Shown here in pieces: positions 10,901-60,100 of a stretch of DNA of 64,000 nt. Origin of the DNA: Branchiostoma lanceolatum (lineage: Eukaryota > Chordata > Leptocardii > Amphioxiformes > Branchiostomatidae). The position numbers and the translations under genes were made by a program. The notes beneath the pieces are model-generated. The model saw only the letters and a list, made by a program, of their open reading frames with translations. It made no database searches and was not told the DNA's origin. The stretch spans positions 8,286,501-8,350,500 of the forward strand of contig NC_089724.1 in assembly GCF_035083965.1 (NCBI RefSeq), given 5' to 3'. Each line of letters starts with the position of its first letter. Positions within the stretch are counted from its first letter, which is position 1.

Positions 10901-13900
10901 CCCTCCCACTCTGGAAGGAATCTGGTAATAATGACAATTCTATATAAACTTTTGGATAGCATAGCGTAGCTTTTGCGTACAACGTAGTCATGCCTTACAT
11001 TCTTCGCAATAAAGAAATACGGTTGGTATTCACCCCTTTCTCGTCGTCTTTTTTTAAACCTTAAAGTTAACAGTCATGAAGAAATGCCTGCACCATCATT
11101 GGTACAAATCCGCCAAACTTGGGAGTTGCAGTTGATAAAATGCAAAAGTCTTTCCACACTGTAAAAATTTTCAAAATATTTACAAATGTGTTCTGCAGTA
11201 ATAAGAATCTAATTACTTTGAATCGCTAAAGAAAAATGTTGGAATGATATCTGAAACATCTGATATTTCCATATTGTAATCCAGTGGGATAAATGGAATT
11301 TTTTATTCTTTAATTTCCTGGATGACTAATTGATATTTACAAACGTGTCCTTCAGGTGTTTGCAGAACTGTGGCCGGTACTTGAACCCGTCGGAGCGTCT
11401 GATAATGAGCGGTAGATGTATGGACTGCACCCCTGAAACCCGCCCTAGGTACCTGTGGAGTCTCGTACCGGAACCGGGGAGCAGTAAACAGACTATAGCC
11501 TGGGGTACAGAAACACTCACGGGCAGGAACAAGGCGTTTCTGTCCGTGCAGGCGAACACGTTTCAGGTCGCGGAGTTAGCGGAAACATTCACCTTGCGAA
11601 TCGAAGGTGGGTATGCTGGATAATAAGGTATAAGTGACCATGAAAAAAACCTGTTTATTCATATTGTTTTCAACCTAAGGATGGGTTGATGAAGGTTAGA
11701 CATCCAGGTAAACAATTCTAACTTACATTTCAAACTCTACTACTGGATAAATTACGGATATTATTTCCGGACGTTTCGAGTGACATCCATCACTCTTCTT
11801 CAGCTTCACTAAAAAGAACTAACCAGTACTTATTTACATTAACTAGAAAAAAACGGTTTTACATGGCAAAATCACACAGTCAGTTACTGACGCTGAAGAG
11901 GAGTCACGGATGTCACTCGAAACGTCCGGAAATGATATCCGTAATTTATCCAGTAGTAGAGTTTGAACTGTAAGTTAGCAACCTGATGATGTTTACGTGA
12001 TGCAGCTTTAGCTGCTGCCTTATAATACTAATTTAAAAGCTGTGTTGACCAAGAAATCACTTCAGGAGGTTGCACATCGCTAGTCAATGATTTATCTTAA
12101 GAAAACCTCAAGATGCTTGTCATGCCTAATAGTGACACAGAGATTTTCACAATAATTGTCCTTCCAGTTTTCAGCTGGAGTGGAGCGTCTGCCTTCGCTC
12201 TTTACAGCTTCACCACTAACGCCCCTCCAACTATTGGGACGTGTGCGGTCGTTCCGGATACCGGGACCGTAATGGAAACACTGTTTCAAATCAAATGTTC
12301 CGGATTTATGGACGACAACGTACCTTTGAAGTACCGCTTCTTTGCCATCATCGGGGAAGAGAAATCCGAGACCGGAGAATCGTCACAGGGTAAGAGAGGA
12401 TGTTACATTTTTTGGCACTTGACGAGAGTTTATTTGTGTGAACATGTTTGTATTGGTAAAGATTGTTGTCTGAAGTTTCAGGTTTAGTGTGTTCAACTGT
12501 ACATTTCGCCATTGGGTAAAGGGATCGGACATGCGCCTTCAGCAAATTATTCTTGTCATACCATATCAATTATTTCCAGCATATATATTAGATCATTATA
12601 TTTTGTTATAAGTAAGTGAATTATGTTTTGTTGTAAGTTTGTATTCTTATCTTTTCACTTTTATGTCTTGTGTATATATGTTTAGTGGTGGCGCTAATAT
12701 ACGTTTGTCAACTTGATTGCGTCACCGCTACGTCTGTAATCTCTTCTCATTGCATTTGTAAAATAATTGTGAAAAATTGAAGGTTATGTTTTCCAGAATA
12801 TGATTTACCAACACAAAGGAACTTTCATGCTCATTATAATCATGGTAAACTAAAATGGCAATACCTCCACCCCCTGACAGGTAGTATGGTATATTACGGT
12901 ATGGACAGCAAGTCTCCACCAATATACCTGCCTCTTGGTGACAAGAACAAAAACTACCTGGTCACCATCGTCATCACAGTCTCTGACACCGAAGGGGCAA
13001 GCTCAAGGACAACTACAACGGTTCAGGTGCGTTATGCACGTTGTTAGATTAGCCCAGACTCAGTGATGCATGCACTGGTATATGTCAATCACTATATCTA
13101 CACAAGTGATGAGGGATACTGACATACGCTAACTGGCATCATGTTTCAAGTTGAGAAATAGATTGAATAAAGGATTTATTAAACTAATACACACGACTAC
13201 AAATTGAGAAGCTACTAGGAGCTTTCAGATGACATCCGCCATCTTTCAGCGCAGCTATCAGAGGTGTCACGTGACATAGGTGTCAAAGGTCACCCAGGTC
13301 ACGTGACTGGACGAGAGAGTTGTAGACTCGGAGGGAGTCTGTGGCGTCCTTGGTCACGGTTGAGGGACGGAGAGCGGGACCTGATGTGCACAGCTTCCTT
13401 GACTCCCCGTTCAAACCATCTGCTTTCTCGGTCAAAGGTGGTGACCTTCTTCGTTGGTTGGTGTTTGTAAGTCTGCATGTGTTGTGCAACCGGAGAGGAA
13501 TCACGCTTGTGCTCTGAAATCCTCTTTTTGAGGGCCCTTTCCATCTCGCCCACATACTGAGCATCACAGTCTTCGCATGTGAGATGATATACTACGCCGC
13601 ATGTGTCGTCCGGTTTATCCTTGTCCTTAGGAGCAACCAGGAGCCTCCTGATGGTGGTGTGGGGTGTACTATGGACAGCCACCCCTGTTTTCCTGATCTT
13701 CCTGGTGAGAAATAGATTGCTCTCCAACTCAAAGAATTGACTTACCGGAATTTTCGACCGAATCACTCGGTCTTCCTAAGCTGTCTGACCCAGATGCTGT
13801 GGACACGTGCCTCTTACGCAGGCGTGACGTCAGCAATGGGTCAAAGTTTGTTGGAAGTCGGCATCGCCCCCCCCAGAAGTTTTCGGTAAGTCAATTCTTT

Positions 13901-25900: not shown

Positions 25901-28649
25901 CCCTTTTCGAATTCTGCGATTACGACTTTAATATTTGCCTTGGGTCTACAATCCAAAACATACTTTAAGTTTTGATAGCCAATACACACAACAGACTAGA
26001 ATTACAAGAAGTCTACATGTTTGAATTCCACTCATGAACAACAAGTAGCGTGAACATTGTATCTTTGACCAGCTGCAGGGTGTTACAACTGTGACATTTG
26101 TTTCAACAGATTCAAGATCGCTATGATGTGTACTTGTGGTTGGAGGAAGAGATCTTCATGAATCTGTACGACTTCGACAGTCCTTTCACAGCCGATGGGC
26201 AGTCTGTCGTGGTTGGATCCGTCAGGATGCGGCAAGTGCGCGTGTCAACAGGTGAGTGGACACCAACTTTACCATGTAATAACAAACAGCATGATACGCA
26301 AAATGACAGTAATGCTTCGGTCCAAATTGGAAAAAGGGGCTCCGCTTGGTAGTTCACGGGATATCTTTTTGTTGCTTTTTCGGGCTCAGACTTAGATTGA
26401 ACGCGGGACCCGGTAACAAATAGACATCGTGTGAGTACCTTGTGCACCCCCGGTACCTGGCAGTCTACCGGGACAAAGTCATGGCTTCGGGCCCGGCCGG
26501 GACTACAACCCCGACCAGGACCGGTGCAATTGGGACCAAAGCATTACTCAAGCAACTGGATAAACTGTTCCAAAATTCAGGTTGCTTGAATAGCTGTCAC
26601 CTTCTTTTGTGTCTTAATACCTGTATGTATTATGTGTCATCGACAAAACAGCTTGATACATTCCTTGTTCGCTTAAGTGTTTAAGGTTAGACACTGTTTT
26701 CCAAAATCTTAGCCAGTTCCTTGAGTAACTATTACTCTCCAAGCAGAGGATGGGTTCCGGCAGGTTTTTGACTTGTTTTTAGGCGTTTTTGTCGGCCTTT
26801 CTACTTTTTCATTTTTTTTTCTCTATAAACCCAACGTTTATAGAGACAAAAAAAAGATGAAAAAGTAGAAAGGCCGACAAAAACGCCTAAAAACAAGTCA
26901 AAAACCTGCCGGAACCCATCCTCTGCTTGGAGAGTAAGTAACTATTACCTTGTGTAACATATTATCCGCATATCTAACCTTCATCGACAAAACAGCTCGA
27001 TACATTCCGTGTTCGCTAAATTTGTTATATTAATTTATATTAATATAAAGCTTTTAAGGTTTAAAACTACTGGTGGGACTACAGATCAATGTTAATGTTA
27101 CTTACTATATCATAACTTTCGTTATTCTACTTCAGATCTACTATATCCTTATTGAATTTCTATCCTCTTATTGAATACAGAAAAATGTACTGCACGGAAC
27201 AACGGCGTGATGGGCACCAGACTTCTATCGCTCTACTTCGACTTCTGTGGCGAGGATTACACCAGTGATAACGCAGTGACAGAACACTTTCTACCCGGCT
27301 GGGTGAACGCACCGAAGACGGCAAACTTCACCCCGGACACCTCCAGCCCGTGGGTCCACCAACACACAGACACCGTATGGCTGTCATCAGGGTACGGTAC
27401 GGGCAGGTACGTGGCAGATTTCAACGTCAAGACAGCAAATGCCTACTTCCAACTGTATGACCTCGAAGACTTGAAGTGGATCGACGGACAGACCAGAGCA
27501 GTGTTTATTGACTTCATGGTCTACAACGCAAATGTGGACCTGTTCTGTCTAGTTTCGGTTCTCATAGATACACCGGAGACTGGAAATGCACACTCGGCGT
27601 CAACTGTTCGAATGATACGGCTCTACCAGTACAGACACGCTATAGACACGGTGCTACTGATATTTCAGGTAGCCTACACTCTCATGACAATCTACGACAT
27701 CTACTATGCTGTGCGAAGAATTTGTACTCAAAGATGGGCGTACTTCAAGGATGTTTGGAATCTTCTGGATTTCTTGATTATTTTCCTTTCCTTGATAGCT
27801 TTCGCTGCCTTCGGTGCTCGTATGATACTGACGTACCAAGCTCTTGCGAGTTTTAGGAAGAACAAATCTGCCTTCCTGAACCTAGTGCCTGTTATTGTTG
27901 CACACGAGGTATTACTGGCTGTTGTTGCAATCATCGCTTTTATAGGATGTATGCGGTGCTGCAGGCTGCTTCGTGGCAACAACAGCCTCTACCTCATCGA
28001 AGCAACCTTCAAACGGTCCATGGCGCCGTTGATGTCACACGGCCTCATGATAGTGATCATGATGATTGGGTACGCTATGTTTGGAAACCTCGCCTTCGGC
28101 CGCCAGGTTGAGTCGTACTCATCCTTACCCCGAGCTCTCGTCACAGTTTTGAACTTTGCCATCGGGGCTTACGAGATGGATGACTACATGGCGTCACCGG
28201 CGATGGGTTCAGTCTTCTTCATCAGCTTCATCTTCTCCATGGGGTTTATCCTCCTGAACTTCTTTGCTGCCATCATGATGGACATCTTCGCTGCGGAGAA
28301 GGAGGAGTTCGAGGTACCGAAGGAGGGGGAGATAGTGACGTACACGATCGAACGCGTCAAGTCCATTTTGGCATTAAAAAAAAGCCGCCGTGACGACGAT
28401 GATGATAAAGATCTTTCTGGATTAAACCTCCTAAGCTCTCCGCTAATCCGAAGAAGGGGAAGAAATCTCGGCGTGGGCATGAGTGAATACTCGTTCGACG
28501 ACGTTGAACAAGGCTCACAGCCCTCACCGTCCGCAGAAAGTCTTGGTTTTGAGCCAATGTTGGATTGGCCTCCGAGAGGCACTCGTTTCAGAAATGTGAG
28601 CACAGTACACATAAAGAAAGACAGCGATTTACGACACAGAATGGTATGA
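1..28649 (+). CDS. Polycystin-1-like receptor/channel (EGF-PKD-REJ-GPS-PLAT-TOP), 5' truncated by window edge
   Basis: Spliced gene read from GT-AG sites with continuous phase. Exons: 1-133, 625-774, 1112-1252, 1840-1962, 2557-2681, 3898-4558, 4775-4884, 5251-5365, 6204-6324, 6815-6941, 7506-7631, 8447-9110, 9690-9836, 10284-10370, 10807-10924, 11356-11606, 12168-12389, 12881-13026, 14235-14417, 14949-15074, 15367-15552, 15951-16226, 16593-16829, 17445-17691, 18079-18191, 18934-19164, 19400-19529, 19858-20014, 20809-20905, 21609-21742, 22232-22741, 23065-23281, 23680-23797, 25292-25569, 26110-26251, 27181-28649. They total 8418 nt (2805 aa plus stop), which supports the chain. The domain order matches polycystin-1/REJ-family proteins, large surface receptors that pair with TRPP channels. 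The donor at 15552 is a weak GTGCGC and the least certain junction. The PKD1, PKD1L1, PKD1L2 and PKD1L3 subtypes cannot be separated by eye. The start codon lies outside the window. Confidence 0.93.
2148..2513. mobile_element. TIR element family A, copy 1
   Basis: Ends are AGGCCATGTTGATTTGATTA and its inverse ATCAAATCAACATAGCCT. No coding capacity; ~366 bp, within a polycystin intron. Internal sequence (CACGTAGATTTCATAATGAAGGC) is shared with copies near 14426 and 20095. Read as a MITE-like non-autonomous DNA transposon. Confidence 0.8.
3658..3838. repeat. ATA/ATG-type (GATAAT)n microsatellite
   Basis: About 180 bp of imperfect GATAATAAT units ending about 60 nt before exon 3898-4558. Confidence 0.9.
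5386..5627. mobile_element. TIR element family C, copy 1
   Basis: The ends are inverse of each other (TCTCACTGGGCCCGCGGCACGC and GCGTGCCGCGGGTCCAGTGAGA, each split by one mismatch). The core has TTTGTGTGTTTTGTGGTCTTTT and GATATTCCATTATAAAGTCAAG, shared by five other copies in the window. Confidence 0.8.
8175..8319. repeat. Hairpin element family E, copy 1
   Basis: Arms of about 38 nt (GCCAAAAATAGTTAGTCAAG... and inverse ...CTTGACTAACTATTTTTGGC) around a ~65 nt loop. The arm piece CAAGCAACTGGATAA recurs near 26550. Confidence 0.75.
9444..9656. repeat. Tandem duplication in a polycystin intron
   Basis: The block from TGCCTGTAGCTTTCCAT to GTGTATACAAATGTACA (9444-9541) recurs diverged at 9564-9656, period about 120 bp. 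Confidence 0.7.
9926..10190. mobile_element. TIR element family A, copy 2 (5' truncated)
   Basis: It keeps the right end (TAATCAAATCAACATGGCCT) and internal 'CTGGTCAGGAAGGATGAGTAAA' sequence found in copy 20095-20502, but the left terminal repeat is missing. Confidence 0.7.
11719..11977. repeat. Inverted-repeat element in a polycystin intron
   Basis: About 85 nt arms (TAACTTACATTTCAAACTCTAC... GACGTTTCGAGTGACATCC... and inverse) flank a ~90 nt loop. The GACGTTTCG..TGACATCC block also occurs in related form near 32860 and 13230. Confidence 0.8.
13165..13925 (-). mobile_element. Penelope-like retroelement relic with GIY-YIG domain fragment
   Basis: A minus-strand open frame at 13766-13299 (155 codons) encodes 'CGVVYHLTCEDCDAQYVGEMERALKKRISEH'-type sequence (split here as CGVVYHLTCEDCD and AQYVGE...KKRISEH). 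This matches the GIY...QYVGE...R..EH pattern of the GIY-YIG endonuclease at the C-terminus of Penelope-like reverse transcriptases. No reverse transcriptase domain is present, so it is truncated. Next to it, 13727-13756 and 13880-13908 form an inverted repeat (AAAGAATTGACTTACCG). It sits in a polycystin intron, opposite to the gene. Confidence 0.7.
14054..14123 (+). pseudogene. Relic duplicate of the start of polycystin exon 14235-14417
   Basis: The stretch repeats the acceptor and first ~14 codons of the real exon at 14235 (CCGTAGGTTAA.CAGCCTGAAGAAATGGAGGACACGGCGA, shown here in parts). It differs at a few bases and then breaks off into unrelated sequence without a good donor. It lies about 155 bp upstream of the real exon and would compete as an acceptor. 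Confidence 0.7.
14426..14822. mobile_element. TIR element family A, copy 3
   Basis: Terminal repeats AGGCCATGTTGATTTGATTA and TAATCAAATCAACATGGCCT delimit 397 bp. The left end begins only 8 nt past the end of exon 14235-14417, so the element abuts the donor site. Confidence 0.8.
16288..16520. repeat. GC-rich dispersed repeat family B, copy 1
   Basis: It contains GGGACCCGGTAACAGATAGAC, a poly-C tract, GGCAGTCCACCGGAAAC and GGCTTCGGGACCCGACCGGG. The same order of blocks recurs at 23398-23660 and 26333-26545. No coding content. Confidence 0.65.
19400..20905 (+). other. PLAT/LH2 domain of the polycystin gene
   Basis: Exons 19400-19529, 19858-20014 and 20809-20905 encode a PLAT domain. It starts 'YRYNVTIITGFRRHAGTTASVSLRLIG', continues with 'DSFLVTTRDSLGDLREIMVWNNNGGSNPSW', and ends 'RIMVQDLQTKQRWYFICNSWLA'. 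PLAT follows the first membrane helix in all polycystin-1-type proteins and is an intracellular lipid/protein-binding beta sandwich. Confidence 0.92.
20095..20502. mobile_element. TIR element family A, copy 4
   Basis: Terminal repeats AGGCCATGTTGATTTGATTA and ATAATCACATCAACATGGCCT delimit 408 bp. Internal sequence is in the reverse orientation relative to copies 1 and 3. It lies in the intron splitting the PLAT domain. Confidence 0.8.
21402..21555. repeat. Inverted repeat in a polycystin intron
   Basis: CAACACAAAGCAGCTATTGCC...TACTACGC and the inverse GCGTAGTAATTTGAGGTGAGC...TTTGTG form a ~150 bp imperfect hairpin. Confidence 0.65.
23398..23660. repeat. GC-rich dispersed repeat family B, copy 2
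   Basis: Diverged copy with CGCGGCCAGGCCCC, GAGCTAATTATGAGAGCAC, CCGGCAGTCCACAGGGACAAA and GGGGCACCGGTGCAAAT in the same order as copy 1. Confidence 0.6.
24362..24463. repeat. 13-bp minisatellite
   Basis: Seven full units of AGGATGGAATGCC plus a partial eighth, essentially without variation, in a polycystin intron. Confidence 0.95.
25575..25855. repeat. Inverted repeat in a polycystin intron
   Basis: AAAGTTGAACTGTAATTTCC and the inverse near 25840-25855 (AAATAGTTCAACTTTG) bound the stretch. Internal TGACGTCAC motifs occur in both arms (25685 and 25742), giving an imperfect hairpin of about 280 bp. Confidence 0.6.
26333..26545. repeat. GC-rich dispersed repeat family B, copy 3
   Basis: Copy with GCGGGACCCGGTAACAAATAG, GGCAGTCTACCGGGACAAAG, GGCTTCGGGCCCGGCCGGGA and ACCGGTGCAATTGGGACC. 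Confidence 0.65.
26544..26948. repeat. Family E element carrying a nested perfect hairpin (family D, 26736-26937)
   Basis: The outer element has ACTCAAGCAACTGGATAAAC at 26545 and an inverse end near 26705-26730. Inside is a ~200 bp palindrome with ~95 nt arms starting TCTCCAAGCAGAGGATGGG and ending CCTCTGCTTGGAGAG. The 11-mer GTAACTATTAC occurs immediately on both sides (26725-26735 and 26938-26948) and reads as a target-site duplication. Confidence 0.8.
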
Positions 28650-40672: not shown

Positions 40673-42424
40673 TCATTCTCCCCGCCACAGCGTAAACGTT
40701 GTAACAGCCAACAGGGACAGGAGCAGTGCCCAGGATACGGACAGCACACCGGAACCGGAAACTGCACAGAGAACATGGGAAAATTAACATGGTTTGATGG
40801 CTTACAATACCTCCTCCTGAACTTAGAAAAAATACTTTTCATTACTTCACTATTATTATTTTCATATGTGCAAATGAATAAAACGAACAGATATGGATAA
40901 TGCATATGCTCTCTAAAGATATACGTGAAGTGCATTGTATCATATTTCCGTTTAGCACATGTAAGATACAAGTATGTGTCTTAAAACATTATGTATCAAT
41001 ACCACGGCAAGAATGTATGGTACTGGGTATTCATTCATACAGCAAAGAAGTTACTGAAAGAGCATTGAAACATAATACCTTGGGTTCTTAGAATTGTTAA
41101 AAACATGACAACTCCCTACCGCAGCGAGCGATGCAGATCTCATTGACAGAGACGATGGGCGTGGCCTCGTGCCTGGTGATTGACAGGTCGTCCTGATTGA
41201 AGGTCCCACCTTGCGCGAAGAACATGTGAAGACAGTTGTCGGCAAAGGACAGATCAGAATCATCACCTAACGGGAAGAAAAAAATAGAAAACATATTGTT
41301 ATTTACTTAATATCGTAAAAGAACCAACACACTTATCGTGAAGAGTGGGGGTGATCCGGTGTGCTTGGCCAGAGCGCGAGCCGTAGCGAAGCCGCATTGC
41401 ACTACCACTTCCACACAGGCAAAGCATCAAGTTTTACCTCAACTGAGGATGACTTCTTTACCTTTACTTTATGAAAGATAAAGAAGAAACAAATACAGGT
41501 ATCTTTTACATATAAAATATATCACAGTCAGGGCTTAAATTTTTTCTAGCGTATGCAAACCTTCCAATTTCAAAAAAAGTCAAATGTAAGTTGACGACCA
41601 TAGTGCCCTATTGTTGGGACAAATAAATAATTATCAAAACAATGGACAAAAAACAACACAAGAAAGACGTCTGTAAGGAAAGTCAATGTTGCACCTGTTG
41701 CCCGCGCACGTGTGAATTTGATGCGAAGGACTCCGTCTACGTACGAGCCTTCCTTCCCTTCCAGGTCGTCAGAGTCGTCCACATCGACACCTGAGGTTGA
41801 CTTGGTGGACAGCCACCTGTGGATGTGAGGGGGGTTACATTATACATGGGATTTTGCTTTTATCTAAAAGGTGATGAAAGGCAGAAATTAAAATGAAACG
41901 TCTGAAACTTTCTATAAAGAGACGTGTATGAAAAACGTAACCCCAGGTGGATAGGTTACAGAAAAGAAAAGGACTGTCTTCATATTGCACTTTAAAACTA
42001 CTCCGCTATGTAGTAATCCAAGCATTACGATGTTTTCCTTATGTTTTCCCTGTTTGTGTCTCTTCGGATACATTATCAGTGTTAGAAGCAGGGCTATTTA
42101 CGATACTCCTGGAAGATATATGTCATCTGTTACCTGTCCGTGATGGTCACAGTCCCGTCTTCGTTCCACCATCCCACAACTGCATCAGCATCGGTCTAAC
42201 AATAAAACAAGAAAATAGTACCATACATTTACAATGACGAAAAAGCTATGATTTCATCTGAATCGAACAGACAGACCTGGGCACGTGAATAAGAACGAAC
42301 AAAGCAAGACCTCAAAACATACTATGAGGAAGTTAAATAAAATTCAATCTATACCACGGGATAATCGGATTTTATTTTCCACCTGATACCTTTCATCAAT
42401 TAAGGAAATGATTGGAATAATTAT

Positions 42425-42503
<79 letters not shown>

Positions 42504-45500
42504 CCGCCATCATCATCATCATCATCATCATCATCACCATCATCACCACCATCATCACCATCATCATCATCATTATGTCAACCAACCATGGACTGATCTG
42601 TGGAGAAGCCGAGCCCGATCCAGCGGTCGCTGGTCTGTCTGCCCATCACGTCGAACATGATCTTGTCGGTGGTCTCGTCGTACCACCAGCTGGCGGAGTA
42701 GTCACAGGCCGTGCCCTGGCAGCCGTCCGGACTGCTGTAACTACCCAGGCACTCTGTGGAGCCCGAGGGACTGTCCGGGTTCTCTGGAAATGGAGACAGG
42801 TGTAGGTATAAGTTTGGTATATGGTTACAGAAGCATAATGACCTTGTATAGGATTACCATCATGTAGATGTATAAAGTTTATTTGCCAGTTCATGCCCGA
42901 AGACAAGAGACATACACGTGGCAATGGACAGTGATTGACATCGTTGTAAGTGACTTATCTAAATAGTAGTGTTGGCTATATCTAGACAAGTTGGGTTTGA
43001 CATCCTTTGGAAGCAGAGAAAGACAAAAAGCCCCACTTTCTCTAAGAGGAAAGTTGACTTTCTGTGAATGTGAATCCGTGAATGTGAGAAAGTTCTGGTG
43101 GCTTCTTTATTAGATGCTTCCCTAGTTTTTTTTTTTTAAGTAGGTTTCAAAACATGACAGCCTTAGTAGCTCTTAGTTTGATTAGCGAAACATCAGGAAA
43201 ATATACTCACCGAAAAAGTTCATGGTAAGTGCGCCCCTCTGCGTCTGCGCAGTGCCGTGGTACTTGAGCTCGTCCGGTTGGTAGTAGGCGTAGTCGCTGA
43301 CTGCGCATGTCTCGATGGCGGAGTTTGGCACGTGACTGTACCCGCCCGGTTCCTGACCACGTGCCCAGATCACGTGCATCGGTAACATGTCGATACCGTG
43401 GTCCTGGGACTCGTCAGCTGAAGCAAAAAGAACAACTTATAGAAAAAAATATTGACAAAATGTAACATACCCATGTCCGTTTTCACACATACTCCACTGC
43501 CATACACCATCCTCAAGTCGCTGACGTCATCAACAATAAAATTCATATCATGCATGCCTGCAGAAAAAACCCGGCCTGACTCAATCGTGAATTTGGGCCC
43601 CGGTCAATCCAACGTGGGATTAAGTTTGAACCCGGGCTAACTATGAACACACAGGCAGACCGAATATAGTGCCTCCACTTTCAAGGAAGCAAATGAGGAC
43701 CGACGTGCAGACCTCTGACCTATAACGTAGTACACTCAATTACTACTAACGTACTCAATTCCTTGTAAAAATCAATTGCTATTATATAAAAGAATTTAAA
43801 AACTAGGTAACGTTTTATTTACGTATACAAATAGAACACCTAGGAGTCAGGTTTATGGCGTCGGCCTACTCTGTTTTTGTCGCGCGTTTTCACTTTGCTT
43901 CTCGGAGCCCACCTCAATAAAGCGCGTAACATACATTGATTTAGATAGTCATCATGTAACAACGGAAGTTTAAAACTGTCCGACCCACCGTGGAGCTTCT
44001 TCCTGAACCTGGCCGTGACGACGCCGTTCTCCTCCTTGGCGACGGCGGCGGTGAGACTGTCCCCTCCGCCGTCCCCGTACCACATGTCCCTGCGGGGCGT
44101 GGAGCGGTCCCGCGTGTAGCAGTCATCCACCCGGTACACGTCCCCGCGGGTCACCACGATCACCATGTCCGTACAGTCCATGGCGTGGAGGGAGTCGCCG
44201 CCTGCAGATGATGTAGGGATAAAGTTGATCATCAATCAATCAGTCAAACTTCATTGCACAACAAATGTAACAGGTACAATGTATGACAAGTTCTTTAAAG
44301 AACTTGTCATACATTGTACCTGTTACAAGACATATGTGGCATAATATGCTTTTTCTTATTTGAATGGCTTGCCAACAAGTATCTGACATTCATCGTGCAG
44401 TCAAAATTACCGAAGCGCTTACGAAATCAATTTTGAAAAGACAGTGAAGCATGATATCCTTATTATAGGAATATCTTGTGCCTAGAATAGTTCCAAAAGT
44501 TATGAACAACGGTTCGATGTGTAAATTATTCACTGGCCGGCATGCCCTCGACTTATGTTCTGAGGATGTTGATAAATTACTGAAGAAGTTGAAGAAAGTT
44601 GTAACATAAGAAGTCTTGTTAATTAGACAGAAGCCGCAATATCTAGAGAACTTGTGATAACTTTTATTCGTACCGTTTTCCGGCTCTCCCTCCGGTTCCG
44701 CTTCCGCTTCGGCAGTGCCCTCCGGTTCACTTTCCGGTTCTGCGGTGCCCTCTGGTTCCGCTGTGCCTTCCGGTTCCGCTGTGACTTCCGGTTCTGCCGT
44801 AGCTTCCGGTTCACTCTCTGGTTCCCCTGTGGCTTCCGGTTCGCCTTCAGGTTCAGCCTCGGGCTCAGCCGTTGCGCACTGGTCAGGGACGATGGACTCG
44901 GCCTCGGGTTCGGGCTCGGCCACAGACTGTCGCGTGTACCGCCGAATGCTCCGCGTAGACCGCTGGCTCTGTCGGTAAGACGGTTCATGGTTTACACATG
45001 TATTGGTTTTGTTTAAGATATTAAATATATTAAAGCATGATGTGCGGCGATGTGACAATATTACAAATTCAAAAGGGAATGAAGATGGCACACTTGAAAT
45101 GGTCGAATTCTTATGTACTGCCCAGGCCAAGAAGACCACTTAGGCGACCGGTAATATCTCACCGACTCAGGTCTTTGTCTACAGTCAAAGTTTGTCTTAT
45201 TGGGGAAAACTATGTAATGGGGTATTAAAAAGTGGACACATTGACCAGGTTACAGTACGTATTTAAAAAAATTTTTTAGACTGGTCTCGTTACAAAGTAA
45301 TGGGGGAATTATGGGGCTATGATAGTTACCGTCACGAAAGGCTCCTCTTCCTCCGCCCTCGCCGGTTTGACACCCTCATATCCAGCGTAGTTCACCGGAA
45401 AATCCCGACATGTGGCAGTTAGACCTACAGGATAGTAGCAAACGTGGGTGGGAGATGGTTGGGGGAGGTAAAGAGACACATAAACGCATTATGGCCGTAA

Positions 45501-48500
45501 GGCAAACATTTTATTCCAAAAGTTTCTCAATCTGTATCTGTATCTGTATCTATATAGCCGGTACAACCGCCATTAGGCGTAACACACCAGCTTCGCAGGC
45601 ACGCGGCACGGAAGCAGCTGGTTGTATTACACCGAACGGTCTGTTACACCTAGTCTTTGGATATCTGACTGTAACCGTTCTTTAAAGCTACTTATTGAAG
45701 ATGTTCCTACAGTACTTGATGACAACGAGTTCCATTCTGCTATTGTTCTCGGAAAATACGAATTTTTGAACACATCAATCCTTGGCTGATGGTTCATGGC
45801 TGATGGACAATGGTTTCGCTATGTTCAATATTCTAGAGATGGGGCAACAGCACCACACCGTCGTCTTTCTACATTGTACTGTGATTGCCAACTTTAGGTA
45901 CACAAACAGCACGGCAATAGGACGATTAAAGGACGTACCTGAGGGTCTCCACCCTACGGCCACCCAGCCCATCCCCTCCGCCTGCACCAGCACTTCTATC
46001 TCACCCGAGCTCTGAAAAATGGCGTGAGGTGACATGGTTGGTTATTGTAGACGAGAAAGCCCATATCTTTCATATTCATTTTGGCGTACGGAAAATACCT
46101 GTCGGCGGAAGCTATCCTGTCAGCGGTAACATTTCTTGACCAGCGTATTTAGAAAAATCACGTTAAGGGTATACCTGTAAGATTGGGTTGAGACACACAT
46201 ATTTTTCTAACATTTGGATTCTACTTATCAGTATCATAATCTATACGACAACAGATGTAAAAGACAGCATACAATCATTGTAAACATGGCAGATGTGATA
46301 AGCAAGTAGTACCTGCAGAATCTTCCAATAGAGGTCAAACCCATCCGTCAGCTCCCTGTGAAAGTAGTCGCCTGTGTCGACGTCAGTGGTTGTGATGTCA
46401 GAACCTGTTAGGTGAAAATGACATCACAAGAACTTTACTTAGTTACGGTCAGTAAGTGCTGTTTCTGCACCTGGACAAGTACCAAACAATTTTTCAGTTT
46501 GTGATGATGCTGACCATCAAAGCATCAAGGACACTTACTTGAGGAACAGGTCTCTCCGAACCAGCCGGCCTCGCAGAAACATCTGTTCATGGGGTAGTTC
46601 GTCATCGACACTTTCACACACACGGCGTGGTCACCACAGTCAGCGTCTGTCTCACAACCGTCTGGCAAAACAGAAAAGACAATAGATCACTTGCCAATCA
46701 CGTCGGCCATTTTGACTTTCCGGAAGGTCAGCTCGGGGTCATGCACCAAAACGAGGCTCCAGTTGGTGCTCCCAAATGGCCATCGTAATTGGCAAGAGGT
46801 CTATTGATTAGTTCCGCCGGGTAAAGTTGTGATTCTTCAACCAGCGACTAGACTACAGCAGAAAGAGGACGAACGGTGAAAGAATTAGAGGGTTGCATAT
46901 GTGTGGAGCAGAGGTGACTTGGTACTTCCGCGGAAGATACGTATACGACATACTCGCAGGCAGGTATGTACATGTATGTAAATTTGCAGTCTTACCTCGC
47001 GTTGGTAACCCGAACTGATGGTAAATCATCGCTGTTCTGTACGTCACCAAGGACGTTCGTAACGTGGGTAAAATATGTCCTATATCGTATCAAGTCACTA
47101 ATCTTAGTTAATTTCGTACTATTCAATCAAGTTATTTCACAAGTAAATATGTACATTCCCGTACCTCTGAACTGACACCTGTCTCCAGAGTACAGGTGTT
47201 CGCAGGTGCAGGTTGAGCCGTCGTCGCTGCAGGTGCCGTGTCCAGAACACCTGGCAGCGTTACACTTGTCTCCGTCAAATATGGTAGCGGCTGGGAAAGG
47301 ACAATCATTAGTCAGAGAATTTCTCGCATGGTTCAGAACTCGAAGTATATTTTTCAAATCTATACCCTAATGCGGACAAACAAAAGAAGCAGATAAACAT
47401 TTTGGAACAGAGTGAAGCCATATAAAGGCGTCTAATATCCCCTTTCCACTAAAGCTGAGTGACCAAAGATTTGAGACGTCACTCAACGAAGTTCATACAT
47501 AAAGAACGATTTGTTGTTATGTTTTACGTGTTTTGTGTCTTGCATCATAATCCACTTATGGCATAGCGGGTTACACAATTCCAATTTTGGTCGCTGTTCG
47601 GTCGCTCAAGGATCGCCCTCTAGATCTAGAGGAAAGAAGTTTTGATGGGAACTTTTCAGTCACGTACCGTCATCTACGGTGACGTCAGAGCAGCTATGGA
47701 AGACGTAGTCGCCACCGCCGGCTGTTGTCCACTCTGCCGCCTGGCGGGTCAGACGGAGAGTGCAGTTCACGCACGCTGTGCTGATTTGCACGGTAAAGTT
47801 CTGTCTCCTGGTTGAGATGGAATGAAGATCAGATCAGTGTCAACTGATCAATTATTGTTCATGGCAATTTATGACCTTCAGTATTTCTAAGTTGTGGTCC
47901 TTTGTAGCCATAGCTTTAAAGAAAAACTTGTCATTCTTTTCGACGTAGAATGTTACCTATTCTCAAAACATTGACCCCAATACAGAGGGCAATATTTTAG
48001 CATAACCTATTCTAATTCTGGTATAGCCTATCTAAACTTTTGATGAATGAGGCATTAGAATAGCTTGTCCATGTATAACATGCATACACATTTCTACAAG
48101 TTATTTACAAGACCGGGTGTATTTTACATATGCATATACTAGTATACGTATATTCAGGATAGTCTTCATAATGGATATCTCCTATTCCCTTGAAAATATA
48201 GACCCCTAAGATTTCGTGCGGGCAACTCACGTGGCGTCGTCTGCTCCCGTGTATCCATGCCCGTCATCAGGAGTGAGCAGGGTGGGGCTCTGGTCATCCT
48301 CACTCGTCAGAAGCTCGATTCTGAACCCGCCCTGTTGTAAAACATTGATAAGCACTACACACGAAATGAAGCCCTGACAGTAAAAACAAAGTATTCCGTA
48401 AAACAACCATCAATCTAGCAATTAAGTATACAGTTACAGACGTTGTAGATGAGTAGCACTACGATCTTATTCAAACATAATGCATTGTTAAAGTGTTCAA

Positions 48501-49622
48501 ATCTACTTTCAAAGCACTTAAGAGAGAAAATAAAACAACCATATAGCTGGGAGTGATTTTAAGGGTAAAGGGAGTACTGTGTATGAGTGGTTTATGCACA
48601 TTAGGAATGAAGGAATGAAGGATTAAAGGAATGAAGGAATGACGGACTAACGGAATGAAGGAATGAAGGATGGAAGAAAGGAAGGGAGGAAGGAAGGAAG
48701 GAAGGAAGGAAGGAAGGAAGGAAGGAAGGAAGGAAGGAAGGAAGGAAGGAAGGAAGGAAGGAAGGAAGGAAGGAAGGAAGGAAGGAAGGAAGGAAGGAAG
48801 GAAGGAAGGAAGGAAGGAGCAAGGGGTGAATTTTGTTTATAATATCTGCTTGTCTTACGGTGTGAACGTAGGCTTCGTGCCACTCCACGACTATATCAGT
48901 GTTCAGGGGCAGGTATGTGATCTCCGGTGGATCTGCAACATTGAAAGAATACACGAAATATATATATCAATTTTGTCTTTTACAAAAAGGACACTAGCAG
49001 TGGTGTACCAACAAAGATTGCAACACTTGGTATATGACCTACAGGTAATTCATAAGATTGGTACCACAATCAGATACGTATTGTGTTTTACGTGTATTGT
49101 AATCATAAGAATGTACGTTTTGTGTTTATGAAGCCAGAGAAAATCGATTAGATTTTTCTAATCTAATGGATAGATGATAACAAACAATTACTACCAAAGG
49201 CACATGTTGACCTTTCAGTCCATGACAGAAAACCTAAGGTTACAAGTGAAAACATGCACATGTGTATCAACCTGAACAATGCAATGGCTAGGCTAGGGTC
49301 TAGGGCAAAACAAGACAATAACATTACACCAGCAAAATGCCCTTGTCCGTGACTCCCTCGCCTACTGGAACACTTGTCGGAGATTCCAATAATTTTCTTG
49401 AGATTCCGATTATGTTCTGTGCTACATGTATATTACACAGGTGCAAACAGTTTACGCCCGCTTACCCGAAGAAGCCATGCCACAGGGATCCTGAGTCCCG
49501 TGCACGTTGTCCAGAAAGTCGAAGTCGAACCAGCGAGCGGGCGGGAAGGTTAGCCGGACGTGTCCGTGAACGGTGACGACAAGCCATGCCAGCACTACCC
49601 ATGTCCTCACTGTTATCGCCAT
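40673..49622 (-). CDS. Surface protein with N-terminal histidine-brace (LPMO-like) module, two EGF, two DOMON domains and hydrophobic C-terminus
   Basis: Seventeen minus-strand exons: 49622-49466, 48932-48859, 48331-48231, 47807-47668, 47290-47165, 46661-46539, 46404-46313, 46011-45939, 45424-45330, 44968-44674, 44201-43989, 43417-43211, 42783-42587, 42195-42134, 41816-41695, 41266-41120, 40761-40673. Total 2313 nt, 770 aa plus stop, all phases consistent. Residues 1-20 are a signal peptide; cleavage after Gly20 would expose His21 (HVRLTFPPAR). Residues 21-157 resemble histidine-brace copper folds (His76 in YVHTGGFRIEL; Cys123, 126, 150). EGF-like modules are 158-199 and 200-240. DOMON-1 is about 250-565, interrupted by a Glu/Pro-rich insert (about 328-425). 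DOMON-2 is about 576-741 with candidate heme ligands Met631 and His706. Residues 742-770 (VSGSGVLSVSWALLLSLLAV...WRGE) suggest a GPI signal or one membrane helix. The gene structure is secure; the copper and heme roles are inference. Confidence 0.88.
42426..42573. repeat. (CAT)n microsatellite next to a DOMON exon
   Basis: About 145 bp of ATC/CAT units, mostly perfect, ending about 13 nt from the donor side of exon 42783-42587. Confidence 0.95.
44265..44327. repeat. Perfect ~60 bp palindrome in a DOMON-gene intron
   Basis: GTAACAGGTACAATGTATGA and onward to TTCTTT is followed at once by its exact inverse, AAAGAACTTGTCATACATTG and onward to TTAC, with no loop. Confidence 0.85.
44674..44968 (-). 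other. Glu/Pro-rich repetitive exon inserted inside DOMON-1
   Basis: This exon encodes a basic start (SQRSTRSIRRYTRQ) and then about 80 residues of degenerate AEPEGE/PESEPEATAEP repeats. The exon is in frame (phase 0 in, phase 1 out) and lies between the halves of a DOMON domain, so it would form an exposed acidic loop. The DNA is a degenerate GC-rich repeat and probably varies in length. Confidence 0.75.
46683..46806. repeat. Short hairpin element in a DOMON-gene intron
   Basis: TAGATCACTTGCCAATCACG and the near-inverse CGTAATTGGCAAGAGGTCTA bound the stretch, with CGGCCATTTT/AAATGGCC inside. Confidence 0.65.
47437..47632. mobile_element. TIR element family C, copy 3 (diverged)
   Basis: Core of the family (GTTTTACGTGTTTTGTGTCTT, CATAATCCACTTATGGC) with shortened ends CCTTTCCACTAAAGCTGAG and TCGCTGTTCGGTCGC. 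In an intron of the DOMON gene. Confidence 0.6.
48671..48816. repeat. (GGAA)n microsatellite
   Basis: About 36 near-perfect GGAA units, with diverged GGAATGAA units just upstream. It ends about 40 nt into the intron after exon 48932-48859. Confidence 0.95.
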
Positions 49623-55385: not shown

Positions 55386-57107
55386 TTACTTTCCGTTGAC
55401 GGAGACAGCAAAGCTGCTGTAAGAGGTCACCATCTTGGAGGATGTCTTCGACAGGAGCCAGAAGGTCTTTGATCCCTGGAAGATATGTGATGTGTCAATC
55501 AAACAGTTGTTTTACGAAGAGAGTATCGTGAAAACTAGCTTCACTCTTTGTTCAATTTAAATTAAGCTTAAGCGTTATAAAATTTCACATGTGGATTCCC
55601 TAATTTGAAATCCTCTTTGCGCCTCTTTGTGCAAATTGATTTTCTATATTTGAATATATATGTATATATGTCCCTCCTTAATACGATCCTATTCTGTTAT
55701 TACCATTCTATCAGTTTTTTCATGCAAGAAGTATGAAGGGTGCTGGTTTTAGTTCTTTCCACAGTTGTGCAATGGTTCTGGAAGTTGGAACACTGAATAT
55801 GAACCTCCCCGTTGCTATGGAAGTATCTTTTCCTTAGCAACGGTTGCCATAGAAACATGCCAGGCACTTTCAATGGTCAGAAAATGAACACTGTCCAGCA
55901 ACTTTCATCAATCTAGATGTCATTTGGACAAGTATTATACAAGTTATTTCGGGGCTTATTCATCTAAAACATTTGCACAAACTTGCATAAATAGCCCTAG
56001 AACCACGGTGTTCCACCTGGAAGATAGTACCCCAAGCCTTATAACTTGATCGAGAGACACAAATTCTATGGTACTGGGCTAAATATGTACGAAAGGGTCC
56101 CCCGAAAGTACGAAATGGAACGAAATGGAACGAAATGGAACGAAATGGAACGAACCGGTAATAGAACAGCACGTACCTTCATGCCTTTTGGGGTGTCCGT
56201 CCGCGGCACAGTTTTGTACAGACCAGTCAACATCAGTTCGTCATTGGTCGCGCTGGAAATCTGTATCTTATTTCCTGTGTTGTGTAAGACCAATGATCAG
56301 ATTGTAAGGTAAACAGACATTAATTGATAGTAAATCCCAATTTTACTGCGAATCAATGATAATCAAAAATTAATCGATAGTAATATATACATGTAGGTGG
56401 GTGTATTTTAGAGAATGTGCAAAATGATGTAAGGCCCCTTTTGAAGTACACGGTGATCACGCTGCGCTCTCGCTGCGATCTAAATCGGATTTCTGTAAGC
56501 CTTGACTTCATAATTGAAATATCATGGAAAATGTAGAAGTATGATTGAAAAGACAACAAAACACACAAATCGTGAAATGATTGGTTTTCTATCTAGTATG
56601 AAACTCGTTGAGCGCTCTGTTAAATTTTAGGTCACAGAGAGCGCGCGGCGAGAGCGCCGTCGTAGTGGAGTGGGGGTGTTAGTCATCGTGAGTGATACTG
56701 TTCATGTCAGTTACAGAATACGGATCTGCCTTAAAGAACCTAATGTTGATATCTCCCAGCAGTAAACGTTTACATTGCACAAAACTGAGCACCCTGTGCC
56801 CAAAGGATACATGAAACGTGCTTGACATACCTTCACTGGTTGTCTCCAGGCTCTTGGCGGTGGTGACGGTATCTCCGAACACCTGGTACCGAGGCCGCTT
56901 GTATCCCACAACTCCCGCAACACACGGGCCTGGAGAAACAAGCACAACATCCCGAGGTTAAGAGACATATGTAGTTTAGGACAAAAGGTGGTCATATGAG
57001 TATCTACATGAAATATCATATATCCGGAATAAATTGTATATATACGATCATCAATTCATATCGGAAATGATATTTCGTATTTCGTATATATGTTGAACTA
57101 GAATGCC

Positions 57108-57192
<85 letters not shown>

Positions 57193-60100
57193 GTATTAAT
57201 GCCGATGCGGAGCTTGATCTTACAGGACACGTGCACGGGGTCGAATACCTCGGCAGCTGACAGGAAGTCCAGGGCCAGGGAGGCGATCTCGCCCACGTGC
57301 TGGTCGTCATTCGCCTTCGGCAGTCCCGACACGACTTCGTACGCACCTCCTGTGTAAATAACAAGGTATCATAAAGCAGCAGATGCTATTGGTAGAACGT
57401 TAGAACGCAAAGAAAGCGGGTGGTCAGAAAGAAAACTACGAGAGCTAATGATGCTCGTGATGAACCGGACAAAGTGGAGAGACTTGAAGAAAGACTGACT
57501 GCAGCTGCAGGGTGTTCAGACTACTGCAGCAGCAGAACACAGTGGACTTCTGATCTTGTACGAATACATATTAATAATACAAATATATAACTGGCCATAC
57601 TACCATATTCTATAGGGGAAGAGCTAGCAATCCCTCCCTGTACAAATATACCCTGCTACAGAAATAGCAAGGAAAGTTGCTGACCTATGTGCCACAGCCC
57701 ACAGGGTACAAGGTGGATAACAACGTTGCTACCATATCTTTACAAAAGCCCAAATGAGCCACTGGCAACTGCATGTCTAAAGTTTGGAGTTACTAAACAA
57801 AATTTGCATGATCGATGGTTCTCGAGTTGTTTGAAATAACACCATGTGAAAGTGGATAATTATGCAAAGCCGGTCGCTGGTTCAGTGGGGTCGTGTGGGG
57901 TAACGGCAGAGCGTTCGGCTCAGAGCGAAGTGGTCCCGGGCTCGAATCCTGCTATGTCACCCATCTTGTGCACTAGGGAAGGGACTTAACACGACTTTCC
58001 TCACTCCACCCAGGAGTGAATGGGTACCTGACTTTGGTTGGGGAAGGCTGTGTTGAGGTCACCTGGTGGCGTCGAATGGCAGCCGCCCAGGCCCTTGCGA
58101 CAGTTCTACAAAATGCAAGTGTGGAGCAAATATGTACCTGTTGCCCATGTGCATTATGTGATTGTAAACCCTGCACCAATTCAGAGCTAGAAAGGCTGCC
58201 AATGCTAATTGCACCGGTAATTTTTGATGAATAGAAACCTTCATTATTATTCATTTCAGGATCTGACCTGCGCCGTCCAGTTTGGTGGCGTCATACTGGT
58301 CGATGACGGAGTCGAAGGTGTGGTAGAGGCGGTTCAACAGGTCAATCAGCTGGTTGGACGAGAGCGAGGCTGAGACACGAGCGAACCCGACGATGTCCGA
58401 GAACATGATCGTAACCTGAAAAACGATCGACATCTTTCGTCAGATCACGAAGAACGTAGATACTCGAGAGGAGGACAATTATTATTTTTGACACAGTGAT
58501 AATGAGATACAATACCGTAAATGCAGAAATGTTCGCAGTGGTTTTATTTTCACTGTTTTCGAGGTAAGCTCTTCGCCGCGAAATCAAAACCACCGCGTGC
58601 TTAAATGCATTTACAGTATCTATAAGTATACGTTGATGAAGGTTAGTGATTTAGGTAATGAGATACGCTAAAACCAAAAACATTTACTTTAGCAACTGGT
58701 TAGAATTTGGAAATTTCAAAGTTTTTCAATCTTATCAAGCTGCTTGTGGAACTGTTTTTGGCATATCTATAAGTTTGATAGCACAAGAATGAAGTTTACG
58801 CTTACCATGTCGAAGTGTTTAGGGGGCACGGCTTTGTTCTTCGTCATGTCCTGTGCAATGGATTTGGGGAAGATCTGACACAAGAGTTGCTCCGCCCTTT
58901 GTCGTTCTTCGTGGAGCTCCTCCGTCTGTTCGTTCAGACGGGAGGCGAATGACTGCGTGTCGTTCGCCATTCTGTAGATCCCGGATGTGATCAAGAGACT
59001 GGCAACTAACACCAGGACCAGAACTACGATGTCCACGGTCACTTCGGTGCTGCTCTTTTGCACTTGGTCGTCTGAAATTTGGATGATCTTTTCTGCGATG
59101 TGTTTCTCCACTGTACGGAAGATGCTGATGTAAGTAGTCATGTTGTCGAACCACTTCAAACCTTCCTCAATAGCTGGCGAGATTTTCTCGTTCTTGAGTA
59201 TCACCTCGCGCATGCGCATGATGTTATCTTGGAGCGTGGTGTTCTGGAAATCTCTGTCAACGATGGCGACAGTCTGGGGAGAGTACCATTGTGCTGCATC
59301 GAGGTACGACTGCCCTCTGAACCTGGCCTCATGGTACCGCTTTTCGTCTTCACTGGATAGACCTCCTTTCAACAGGAAGAAAAGAATTTTAAGACAGTAA
59401 ATCCTCCCAATATTTCATAATTAACATTTGTAAACAGTGTGGAGTAAGCAGATGTGCCGTACCAGGAACATTCATTGATTGATTTGTAAAGCCCCCCTCT
59501 CACTGGACCCGCAGCACGCTGGTAGCGTCATTGTGTCCTAAACTGGATTTGTGTTACACTTGACTTTATAATGGAATATCATTGAAAACGTACAAGTATG
59601 ACCAAAAAGACAACAAACCACACAAAGCTTAAAAAGATTCCTTTTTTGTCGATGAAATTCGTTGATTGCTTTGTCAATTCGATCGGCCGCAGCGACGCCG
59701 CCAGCGTGCCGCGGGTCCAGTGAGAGGGGGGCTTAAGGCCCCCGTTCCGCTAGACGACGATCGCACTGCGCTCTCACAGCGACCGAACTTGAATTTGTGT
59801 AGCCCTTGACTTTATGATTGGAATATCATGCAAAATGTATACAAGTGTGACCGGAAAGACAAGAAAGCACACTAAATATAAGAAGATTCGTTTCTCATCT
59901 GTGAAATTCGTTTCGCGCTCTGTCAAATTCTACGTCGCAGCGCGATCGCAGCGAGGTCGCCGACCAAGTGGAATAGGGGTGTAATGAACCCATATGCCTG
60001 AAGGATAAAGCCGGTTATGAGAGAAGAAATCTTAATATTTTCAACCCTGATTATCAAAGCTGCAGGACCATACATGAAATAACGCCTCCTACCTTTTGCA

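What the first reader, a model, noticed from the sequence alone, without database searches (positions are those of the whole stretch)
40673..49622. LPMO-like module fused to DOMON (cytochrome-type) domains in one protein
In fungi the DOMON-fold cytochrome of cellobiose dehydrogenase (AA8) passes electrons to LPMOs. Here a putative histidine-brace module and two DOMON domains are encoded in one chain with EGF spacers and a C-terminal anchor. If the ligands hold, this would be a self-contained copper-heme redox protein on an animal cell surface. I know of no described animal system of this type, but I cannot search.
Basis: inference. Interest (0 to 1): 0.88.

Follow-up and report, generated by a model that had tools for sequence, protein, structure and literature searches.

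The report
Likely animal copper-brace and heme protein
One animal gene appears to encode a cell-surface protein that starts with a copper-gripping module related to bacterial and fungal copper proteins and carries two domains of a kind that often holds heme, so copper and heme chemistry may be wired together in a single chain.

Summary
A 17-exon minus-strand gene (49622 to 40673; 16 of 16 introns GT-AG) encodes 770 residues: signal peptide, a module starting with histidine, two EGF-type units, two DOMON domains, hydrophobic C-terminus. The first module belongs to the histidine-brace (LPMO) fold group. Its only curated matches are the bacterial SCE4755 family (E 1e-7) and BIM1-like copper acquisition (E 6e-4), both below cut-off. 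A profile of 43 bacterial relatives scores it 40.4 bits; the best of 2000 shuffles scores 7.6. His1 is kept, and His56 aligns with His91, a copper ligand of the animal LPMO TdAA15A. DOMON2 keeps Met and His where heme ligands are expected; DOMON1 keeps the Met, its His is uncertain. A copper-heme protein in one chain is likely, not proven. A true LPMO is one option only: fungal Bim1 binds copper but is not redox active (PMC7529816). I prefer heme-driven reduction of brace-bound copper for uptake; catalytic oxidation is the main rival. Animal proteomes could not be searched, so how widespread the architecture is stays open.

The parts
40673..49622 (-). whole gene, 17 exons, 770 aa
   Evidence: spliced model, 16 of 16 introns GT-AG, phases consistent
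49563..49622 (-). signal peptide, residues 1-20, predicted to end VHG before His21
   Evidence: read by eye; His21 falls in the column of the first His of the bacterial relatives. No signal-peptide program was available
47668..49562 (-). histidine-brace module, mature residues 1 to about 137 (exons 1-4)
   Evidence: NCBIfam NF043005 E 1e-7, Pfam PF20238 E 6e-4, bacterial profile 40.4 bits
49560..49562 (-). codon of His1 (mature), first copper ligand candidate
   Evidence: H in 42 of 43 bacteria, the other contig is cut; starts of a few rows were trimmed or extended by script
48862..48864 (-). codon of His56 (mature; residue 76), second copper ligand candidate
   Evidence: H in 43 of 43; aligned with His91 of TdAA15A, a copper ligand by PMC5823890
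47699..47701 (-). codon of Phe127 (mature; residue 147), axial position candidate
   Evidence: column is Tyr in 43 of 43 bacteria and Tyr184 of TdAA15A
47165..47290 (-). EGF-type unit 1 (exon 5)
   Evidence: six cysteines; Pfam EGF models below cut-off
46539..46661 (-). EGF-type unit 2 (exon 6)
   Evidence: six cysteines; Pfam EGF models below cut-off
43211..46404 (-). DOMON1 (exons 7-12), interrupted by an insert in exons 9-10
   Evidence: Pfam DOMON 58.0 bits with exon 10 left out
44674..45424 (-). exons 9-10 with their intron: 390 coding bases, phase 1 at both ends, with an acidic Glu-Pro repeat linker in exon 10, inside DOMON1
44179..44181 (-). codon of Met433, candidate heme ligand of DOMON1
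   Evidence: aligned with Met631 of DOMON2
43257..43259 (-). codon of His550, uncertain candidate heme ligand of DOMON1
   Evidence: position only; the alignment does not pair it with His725 (three residues off)
41120..42783 (-). DOMON2 (exons 13-16)
   Evidence: Pfam DOMON 94.0 bits
42587..42589 (-). codon of Met631, candidate heme ligand of DOMON2
   Evidence: in S-x-D-x-x-M, the first part of the motif of heme DOMONs of CYBDOM proteins (PMC10691727)
41169..41171 (-). codon of His725, candidate heme ligand of DOMON2
   Evidence: 94 residues after Met631; 93 in Drosophila CG8399
40673..40761 (-). exon 17: C-terminal hydrophobic stretch (residues about 746-765) and short charged tail
   Evidence: mean hydropathy 1.93 over 19 residues; transmembrane or GPI not resolved

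Best explanation
The gene encodes a secreted, membrane-anchored copper and heme protein. The N-terminal histidine-brace module captures Cu(II) outside the cell through His1 (amino group and ring) and His56. One or both DOMON domains hold a b-type heme through Met and His and act as an electron relay. Electrons that reach the heme (from ascorbate or a cytochrome b561 type partner, both inferred) reduce the brace copper to Cu(I), which is then released to a Cu(I) importer such as CTR1. This is the Bim1 idea of surface copper capture with the missing reductant built into the same chain. Shown: gene structure, domain order, family relation of each module, presence of most of the ligand residues. 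Inferred: anchoring, metal and heme binding, electron transfer, and the copper uptake role.
For: Gene model. Module related to BIM1-like and SCE4755 proteins with real homology. His1, His56 and four cysteines kept, and His56 in the column of a known copper ligand. Bim1 is GPI-anchored, binds copper, works with the Cu(I) importer Ctr1 (PMC9258870, passages), and oxidises ascorbate very slowly or not at all (PMC7529816, passages), so a dedicated electron donor would make sense. A DOMON heme is proposed to pass electrons to extracellular metal in CG8399/SDR2 (PMC10691727, passages). Met-His spacing of DOMON2 is 94 against 93 in CG8399.
Against: The match to BIM1-like is below Pfam's cut-off (20.7 against 27). 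The third Asp ligand of X325 could not be placed in this module. The modelled bacterial relative resembles true LPMOs: the first 24 Foldseek rows are LPMO-fold entries and X325 is not among the 50 rows shown; the sequence profile also finds AA15 and not X325. Neighbours of bacterial relatives show no copper-uptake pattern (20 ORFs, 4 of them without any Pfam match; one weak metal-binding motif). His550 of DOMON1 is not paired with His725 in the alignment. No cytochrome b561 match is in this protein, so the source of electrons is unknown.
Confidence: 0.4

Rival explanations
1. The first module is a working oxygenase (LPMO or peroxygenase) and the DOMON hemes feed it electrons, as AA8 cytochromes feed fungal LPMOs, to cut or modify a surface or food polysaccharide.
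For: Bacterial relatives pass the LPMO_10 cut-off (23) in 3 of 3 tested (34.0, 28.2, 29.9 bits; 3 of the 43 sequences held). A profile of the window module with seven bacterial ones finds the animal LPMO TdAA15A at E 1.7e-4, and one bacterial module alone finds it at 0.0053. The modelled relative has the LPMO fold. Phe127 sits at the axial position. The AA8 domain is needed for PDH and CDH to drive LPMOs (PMC5960967, passages).
Against: The window module itself matches no LPMO model and alone finds no solved structure. No carbohydrate-binding module matched. Bim1 does not cleave cellulose and is not redox active (PMC7529816). Tyr54 stands two residues before His56, where TdAA15A has Ala89.
Confidence: 0.27
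2. A surface adhesion or matrix protein in which the modules are kept for binding, with copper or heme absent or not functional.
For: EGF units and an anchor are common in adhesion proteins (general knowledge); some DOMONs bind sugar, and that of DBH neither sugar nor heme (PMC10691727, passage). The module has lost some residues nearly fixed in bacteria (Leu-Pro motif, Met, Tyr), and the His of DOMON1 is uncertain.
Against: Most residues that would hold metal (His1, His56) and heme (Met433, Met631, His725) are retained.
Confidence: 0.2
3. Two neighbouring genes: a secreted brace-EGF protein and a separate DOMON protein.
For: No transcript data here.
Against: Only 134 bp separate EGF2 from the first DOMON exon; the open frame around that exon holds no ATG (46241-46423); five of five module borders are phase 1 introns and the frame runs through. 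A distant upstream exon with its own start is not excluded.
Confidence: 0.06

Closest known systems
Fungal X325/Bim1 (Cbi1), Pfam PF20238
   Same: histidine brace with N-terminal His, surface anchoring in Bim1; window module matches the Pfam model along its length
   Different: score below cut-off; Bim1 is GPI-anchored and not described with heme domains in the passages read; Asp ligand not placed here
SCE4755 family polysaccharide monooxygenase-like proteins, NF043005 (found here in bacteria titled Myxococcales, Deltaproteobacteria and others)
   Same: best curated match (E 1e-7); shared His1, His56, Glu52, Arg61, four cysteines
   Different: 32.1 bits against a cut-off of 75; no DOMON found in 44 genomes that hold them, though the control was silent; function untested as far as I know (recalled)
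AA15 and AA10 LPMOs (TdAA15A, PDB 5MSZ)
   Same: brace histidine column and axial position align; modelled bacterial relative has this fold
   Different: window module matches no LPMO model; Phe instead of Tyr184; Tyr54 where TdAA15A has Ala89
Cellobiose and pyranose dehydrogenases (AA8 cytochrome with AA3_1 or AA12)
   Same: DOMON-type heme b domain on a secreted redox protein; AA8 drives LPMOs between proteins
   Different: PMC5960967 (2018, passages) lists AA8 in three fungal protein types, none joined to an LPMO; PMC3620520 (2013, passages) also mentions unknown modules; here a brace module and DOMONs share a chain and no dehydrogenase matched
CYBDOM proteins SDR2/FRRS1 and insect CG8399
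   Same: animal DOMON with Met and His heme ligands; proposed extracellular metal reduction
   Different: they have a cytochrome b561 domain; none matched here, and this protein has a copper-type module instead
Dopamine beta-hydroxylase
   Same: animal protein joining a DOMON to copper chemistry; the DOMON1/2 profile finds 4ZEL at E 0.0043
   Different: different copper core (recalled), DOMON without the heme ligands (PMC10691727, passage; Leu in the Met column)

Membership tests
BIM1-like / X325 (PF20238) | score over Pfam's gathering cut-off (27 bits) | tested here: not met
   20.7 bits for the isolated module, match over 1-136; no match when the whole protein is scanned
BIM1-like / X325 (PF20238) | histidine brace residues: mature His1 and an internal His | tested here: met
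   residues present and aligned with bacterial relatives and TdAA15A; binding itself untested
BIM1-like / X325 (PF20238) | Asp as further copper ligand on a Gly-rich loop | tested here: inconclusive
   Asp88/Asp89 lie in a Gly-rich stretch but no X325 sequence or structure could be aligned
SCE4755 family (NF043005) | score over the family cut-off (75 bits) | tested here: not met
   32.1 bits, E 1e-7: a relative, not a member
Catalytic LPMO (AA9-AA17) | match to an LPMO family model | tested here: not met
   no LPMO_10 or AA9 row for the module at E up to 10 (filters drop most matches above 0.1); 3 of 3 bacterial relatives tested do match LPMO_10
Catalytic LPMO (AA9-AA17) | His brace plus Tyr or Phe at the axial position | tested here: met
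   His1, His56, Phe127; that Phe is usual in AA10 is recalled
Catalytic LPMO (AA9-AA17) | oxidative cleavage of a polysaccharide | not testable with these tools
   needs enzyme assay
DOMON (PF03351) | score over cut-off 32.7 bits | tested here: met
   58.0 (exon 10 left out) and 94.0 bits
Heme-binding DOMON / AA8 | axial Met and His | tested here: inconclusive
   Met631/His725 fit in spacing and in part of the motif; Met433 fits by alignment, His550 is not aligned with His725
Heme-binding DOMON / AA8 | match to CDH-cyt PF16010 over cut-off 27 | tested here: not met
   14.0 bits, DOMON2 only
CYBDOM | cytochrome b561 domain after DOMON | tested here: not met
   no such match in the 770 aa

The most novel reading that the evidence does not exclude
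A self-contained copper-heme oxidoreductase on an animal cell surface: DOMON hemes pass electrons within one chain to a histidine-brace copper, which either activates oxygen or hydrogen peroxide on a glycan or delivers Cu(I) to the cell. It would be the first natural fusion of a histidine-brace module with heme b domains that I know of (recall, and the paper searches named in Tried and rejected).
Probability: 0.35. Interest if true: 0.85.

Novelty: new variant of a known kind. Interest (0 to 1): 0.64.

Why it matters
How extracellular Cu(II) becomes Cu(I) before use is called unclear (PMC8867124, start of abstract in the listing), and whether X325-type proteins have redox or electron-transfer roles is open (PMC10952591, passages). 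A natural fusion of a copper brace with its likely electron donor would make both questions testable on one recombinant protein. It would also mean that histidine-brace proteins of animals go beyond AA15 LPMOs.

Tried and rejected
Direct searches with the window module found nothing in solved structures, plasmids or, as confirmed relatives, viral contigs. DOMON2 found nothing in solved structures or plasmids, and DOMON1 and DOMON2 no confirmed relative in viral contigs. Alignment A1 found no relative in viral contigs. DOMON in 44 genomes holding SCE4755 proteins: 0 of 44, but the control was silent in 14 of 14, so absence is not shown. Flanking genes of bacterial relatives (20 ORFs picked from those listed) gave mixed functions: three MTHFR, others a protease, RecA, luciferase-like and so on, 4 of 20 without a match and one weak metal-binding motif under cut-off; neighbourhood does not inform function. 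Animal proteomes and transcripts could not be searched. The species is not identified; the gene neighbours look animal.

Full report
What is there. The minus strand between 49622 and 40673 holds a 17-exon gene. I set the exon borders by reading and joined them by script: 16 of 16 introns are GT-AG, the frame runs through, and the product is 770 residues. Exon GC is 0.599 and third-position GC 0.706 against 0.384 in introns; introns are 134 to 571 bp; an in-frame stop lies upstream of the ATG, which sits in CCATGG.

Architecture. Signal peptide (1-20, by eye), brace module (21 to about 157), two EGF-type units with six cysteines each, DOMON1 with an acidic insert, DOMON2, and a C-terminal hydrophobic stretch. 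The introns at the module borders (4, 5, 6, 12 and 16) are phase 1 in five of five; 10 of all 16 are phase 1, so this alone is only weakly unusual (252/4368, about 0.06, worked out by hand). It is the pattern expected if modules were brought together by exon shuffling, and it fits a single gene. Exons 9 and 10 together are 390 bases with phase 1 at both ends and place a Glu-Pro rich insert in DOMON1 shortly before its candidate heme Met; they could be skipped without breaking the frame.

The first module. Scanning the whole protein gives no Pfam row there; the isolated module matches BIM1-like (PF20238) at E 6e-4, 20.7 bits, cut-off 27, over residues 1-136, and the NCBIfam SCE4755 family at E 1e-7, 32.1 bits, cut-off 75. 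To obtain real relatives I used baits typed from recollection plus the window module (alignment A1); the scan of bacterial genomes gave 12 loci. A search with the NCBIfam model in the phylum of one of these genomes (that of Paraliomyxa miuraensis, L005) gave matches in 40 of 282 genomes, 39 over the cut-off, with loci fetched for at most 30. The BIM1-like model rang in 7 of 95 genomes of the same phylum, 6 over its cut-off, and 7 of 7 places overlap SCE4755 matches. From the loci fetched, 43 distinct domain sequences remained after identical ones were dropped.

Is the relation real? A profile made from the 43 bacterial sequences scores the window module 40.4 bits; the best of 2000 shuffles scores 7.6. 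With only the 31 sequences that came from the NCBIfam model searches, and not from the scan whose query held the window, the score is again 40.4. In the alignment, the window keeps His1 (42 of 43 bacteria; one contig is cut), His56 (43 of 43), Glu52 (42 of 43), Arg61 (42 of 43), Asp88 (41 of 43, alignment uncertain there) and the cysteines at 27, 103, 106 and 130. It lacks the Leu-Pro motif and a Met fixed in 43 of 43, and has Phe127 where 43 of 43 have Tyr.

Link to LPMOs. A profile of the window module with seven bacterial ones finds the animal LPMO TdAA15A (5MSZ) at E 1.7e-4. It puts the His56 column on His91, which binds copper together with His1 in that enzyme, and the Phe127 column on Tyr184, the axial residue (PMC5823890, passages read). 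The window module alone finds no solved structure; one bacterial module alone finds 5MSZ at 0.0053. Three bacterial relatives tested match both LPMO_10 (over cut-off in 3 of 3) and BIM1-like (over cut-off in 1 of 3). An AlphaFold2 model of one bacterial module (L011; 11 sequences, mean pLDDT 71.3, so of middling quality) finds LPMO-fold entries, some under old names such as CBM33 and GH61, in the first 24 of 50 Foldseek rows shown, best E 8.9e-5, query-normalised TM-scores 0.34 to 0.49. So the module belongs to the histidine-brace fold group, between BIM1/X325 and LPMO_10, without being a member of either by cut-off.

The DOMON domains. Both pass the Pfam cut-off. PMC10691727 (passages read) reports that heme DOMONs of animal CYBDOM proteins keep a Met in S-x-D-x-x-M-G-x-D and a His 93 residues on in CG8399. 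DOMON2 has S-T-D-Q-S-M-T-D-A-D, a partial fit (no Gly, the last Asp one place late), with Met631 and His725, 94 apart. DOMON1 has Met433, aligned with Met631. Its His550 lies 117 on, with about 22 residues inserted between, but the alignment does not pair it with His725; it is three residues off. A profile of the two DOMONs finds dopamine beta-hydroxylase at E 0.0043, with Leu in the Met column. Heme binding is therefore likely for DOMON2 and plausible for DOMON1. CDH-cyt gives only 14.0 bits for DOMON2.

Mechanism. I think a DOMON heme reduces copper held by the brace. Two outcomes are possible. In the copper uptake reading, the module works like Bim1: PMC7529816 and PMC9258870 (passages read) describe Bim1 as an anchored copper binder acting with Ctr1, which oxidises ascorbate very slowly or not at all and does not cleave cellulose. 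A fused electron donor would supply what that system seems to lack. In the oxygenase reading, it works like an LPMO fed by an AA8 cytochrome (PMC5960967, passages read). The window module's match to BIM1-like and lack of any LPMO model match make me favour the first, but the bacterial relatives, the AA15 profile hit and the modelled fold pull the other way, so confidence is moderate. Neighbours of bacterial relatives (20 ORFs) did not decide it.

What is known. PMC5960967 (2018, passages) lists AA8 in three fungal protein types, none joined to an LPMO; PMC3620520 (2013, passages) says AA8 also occurs with CBMs or unknown modules. My paper searches on BIM1, LPMO, X325, AA8 and DOMON showed no brace-DOMON fusion in the listings, but the library lacks most subscription papers and the lists were cut. 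Parts are known; I found no description of the combination in one animal chain. I rate it a new variant of a known kind.

Limits. No animal proteome, transcript or second species was searchable, so conservation is unknown. The species is not identified; polycystin-channel and guanylate cyclase matches nearby fit an animal genome. Anchoring, copper, heme and electron transfer are inferences from sequence.

Noticed in passing
window 57054-57368 and 58770-59414, minus strand: Pieces matching guanylate cyclase catalytic and HNOBA models over cut-off and NIT (nitrate and nitrite sensing) just under it (24.8 against 24.9), possibly one NIT-type guanylate cyclase gene.
   Followed up: partly
window 3898-28646, plus strand: Polycystin channel models match over cut-off at 27156-28646; PKD, REJ and GPS pieces upstream are under cut-off; together consistent with a polycystin-1-like gene.
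   Followed up: partly
window 13302-13775, minus strand: GIY-YIG match below cut-off (19.1 against 22.6); possibly a remnant of a Penelope-like element (recalled, not tested).
   Followed up: no
window 42427-42575 and 48690-48818: Simple repeat arrays (ATC type in intron 13, GGAA type in intron 2) inside the gene, seen in the sequence.
   Followed up: no
window 44674-45424: Exons 9 and 10 form a frame-neutral cassette with an acidic repeat linker inside DOMON1, shortly before its candidate heme Met; possible alternative splicing.
   Followed up: partly
L022, L011, L036 modules: Bacterial SCE4755-type modules match both LPMO_10 and BIM1-like models, so this family may link X325/BIM1 to LPMOs (3 of the 43 sequences tested).
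   Followed up: partly
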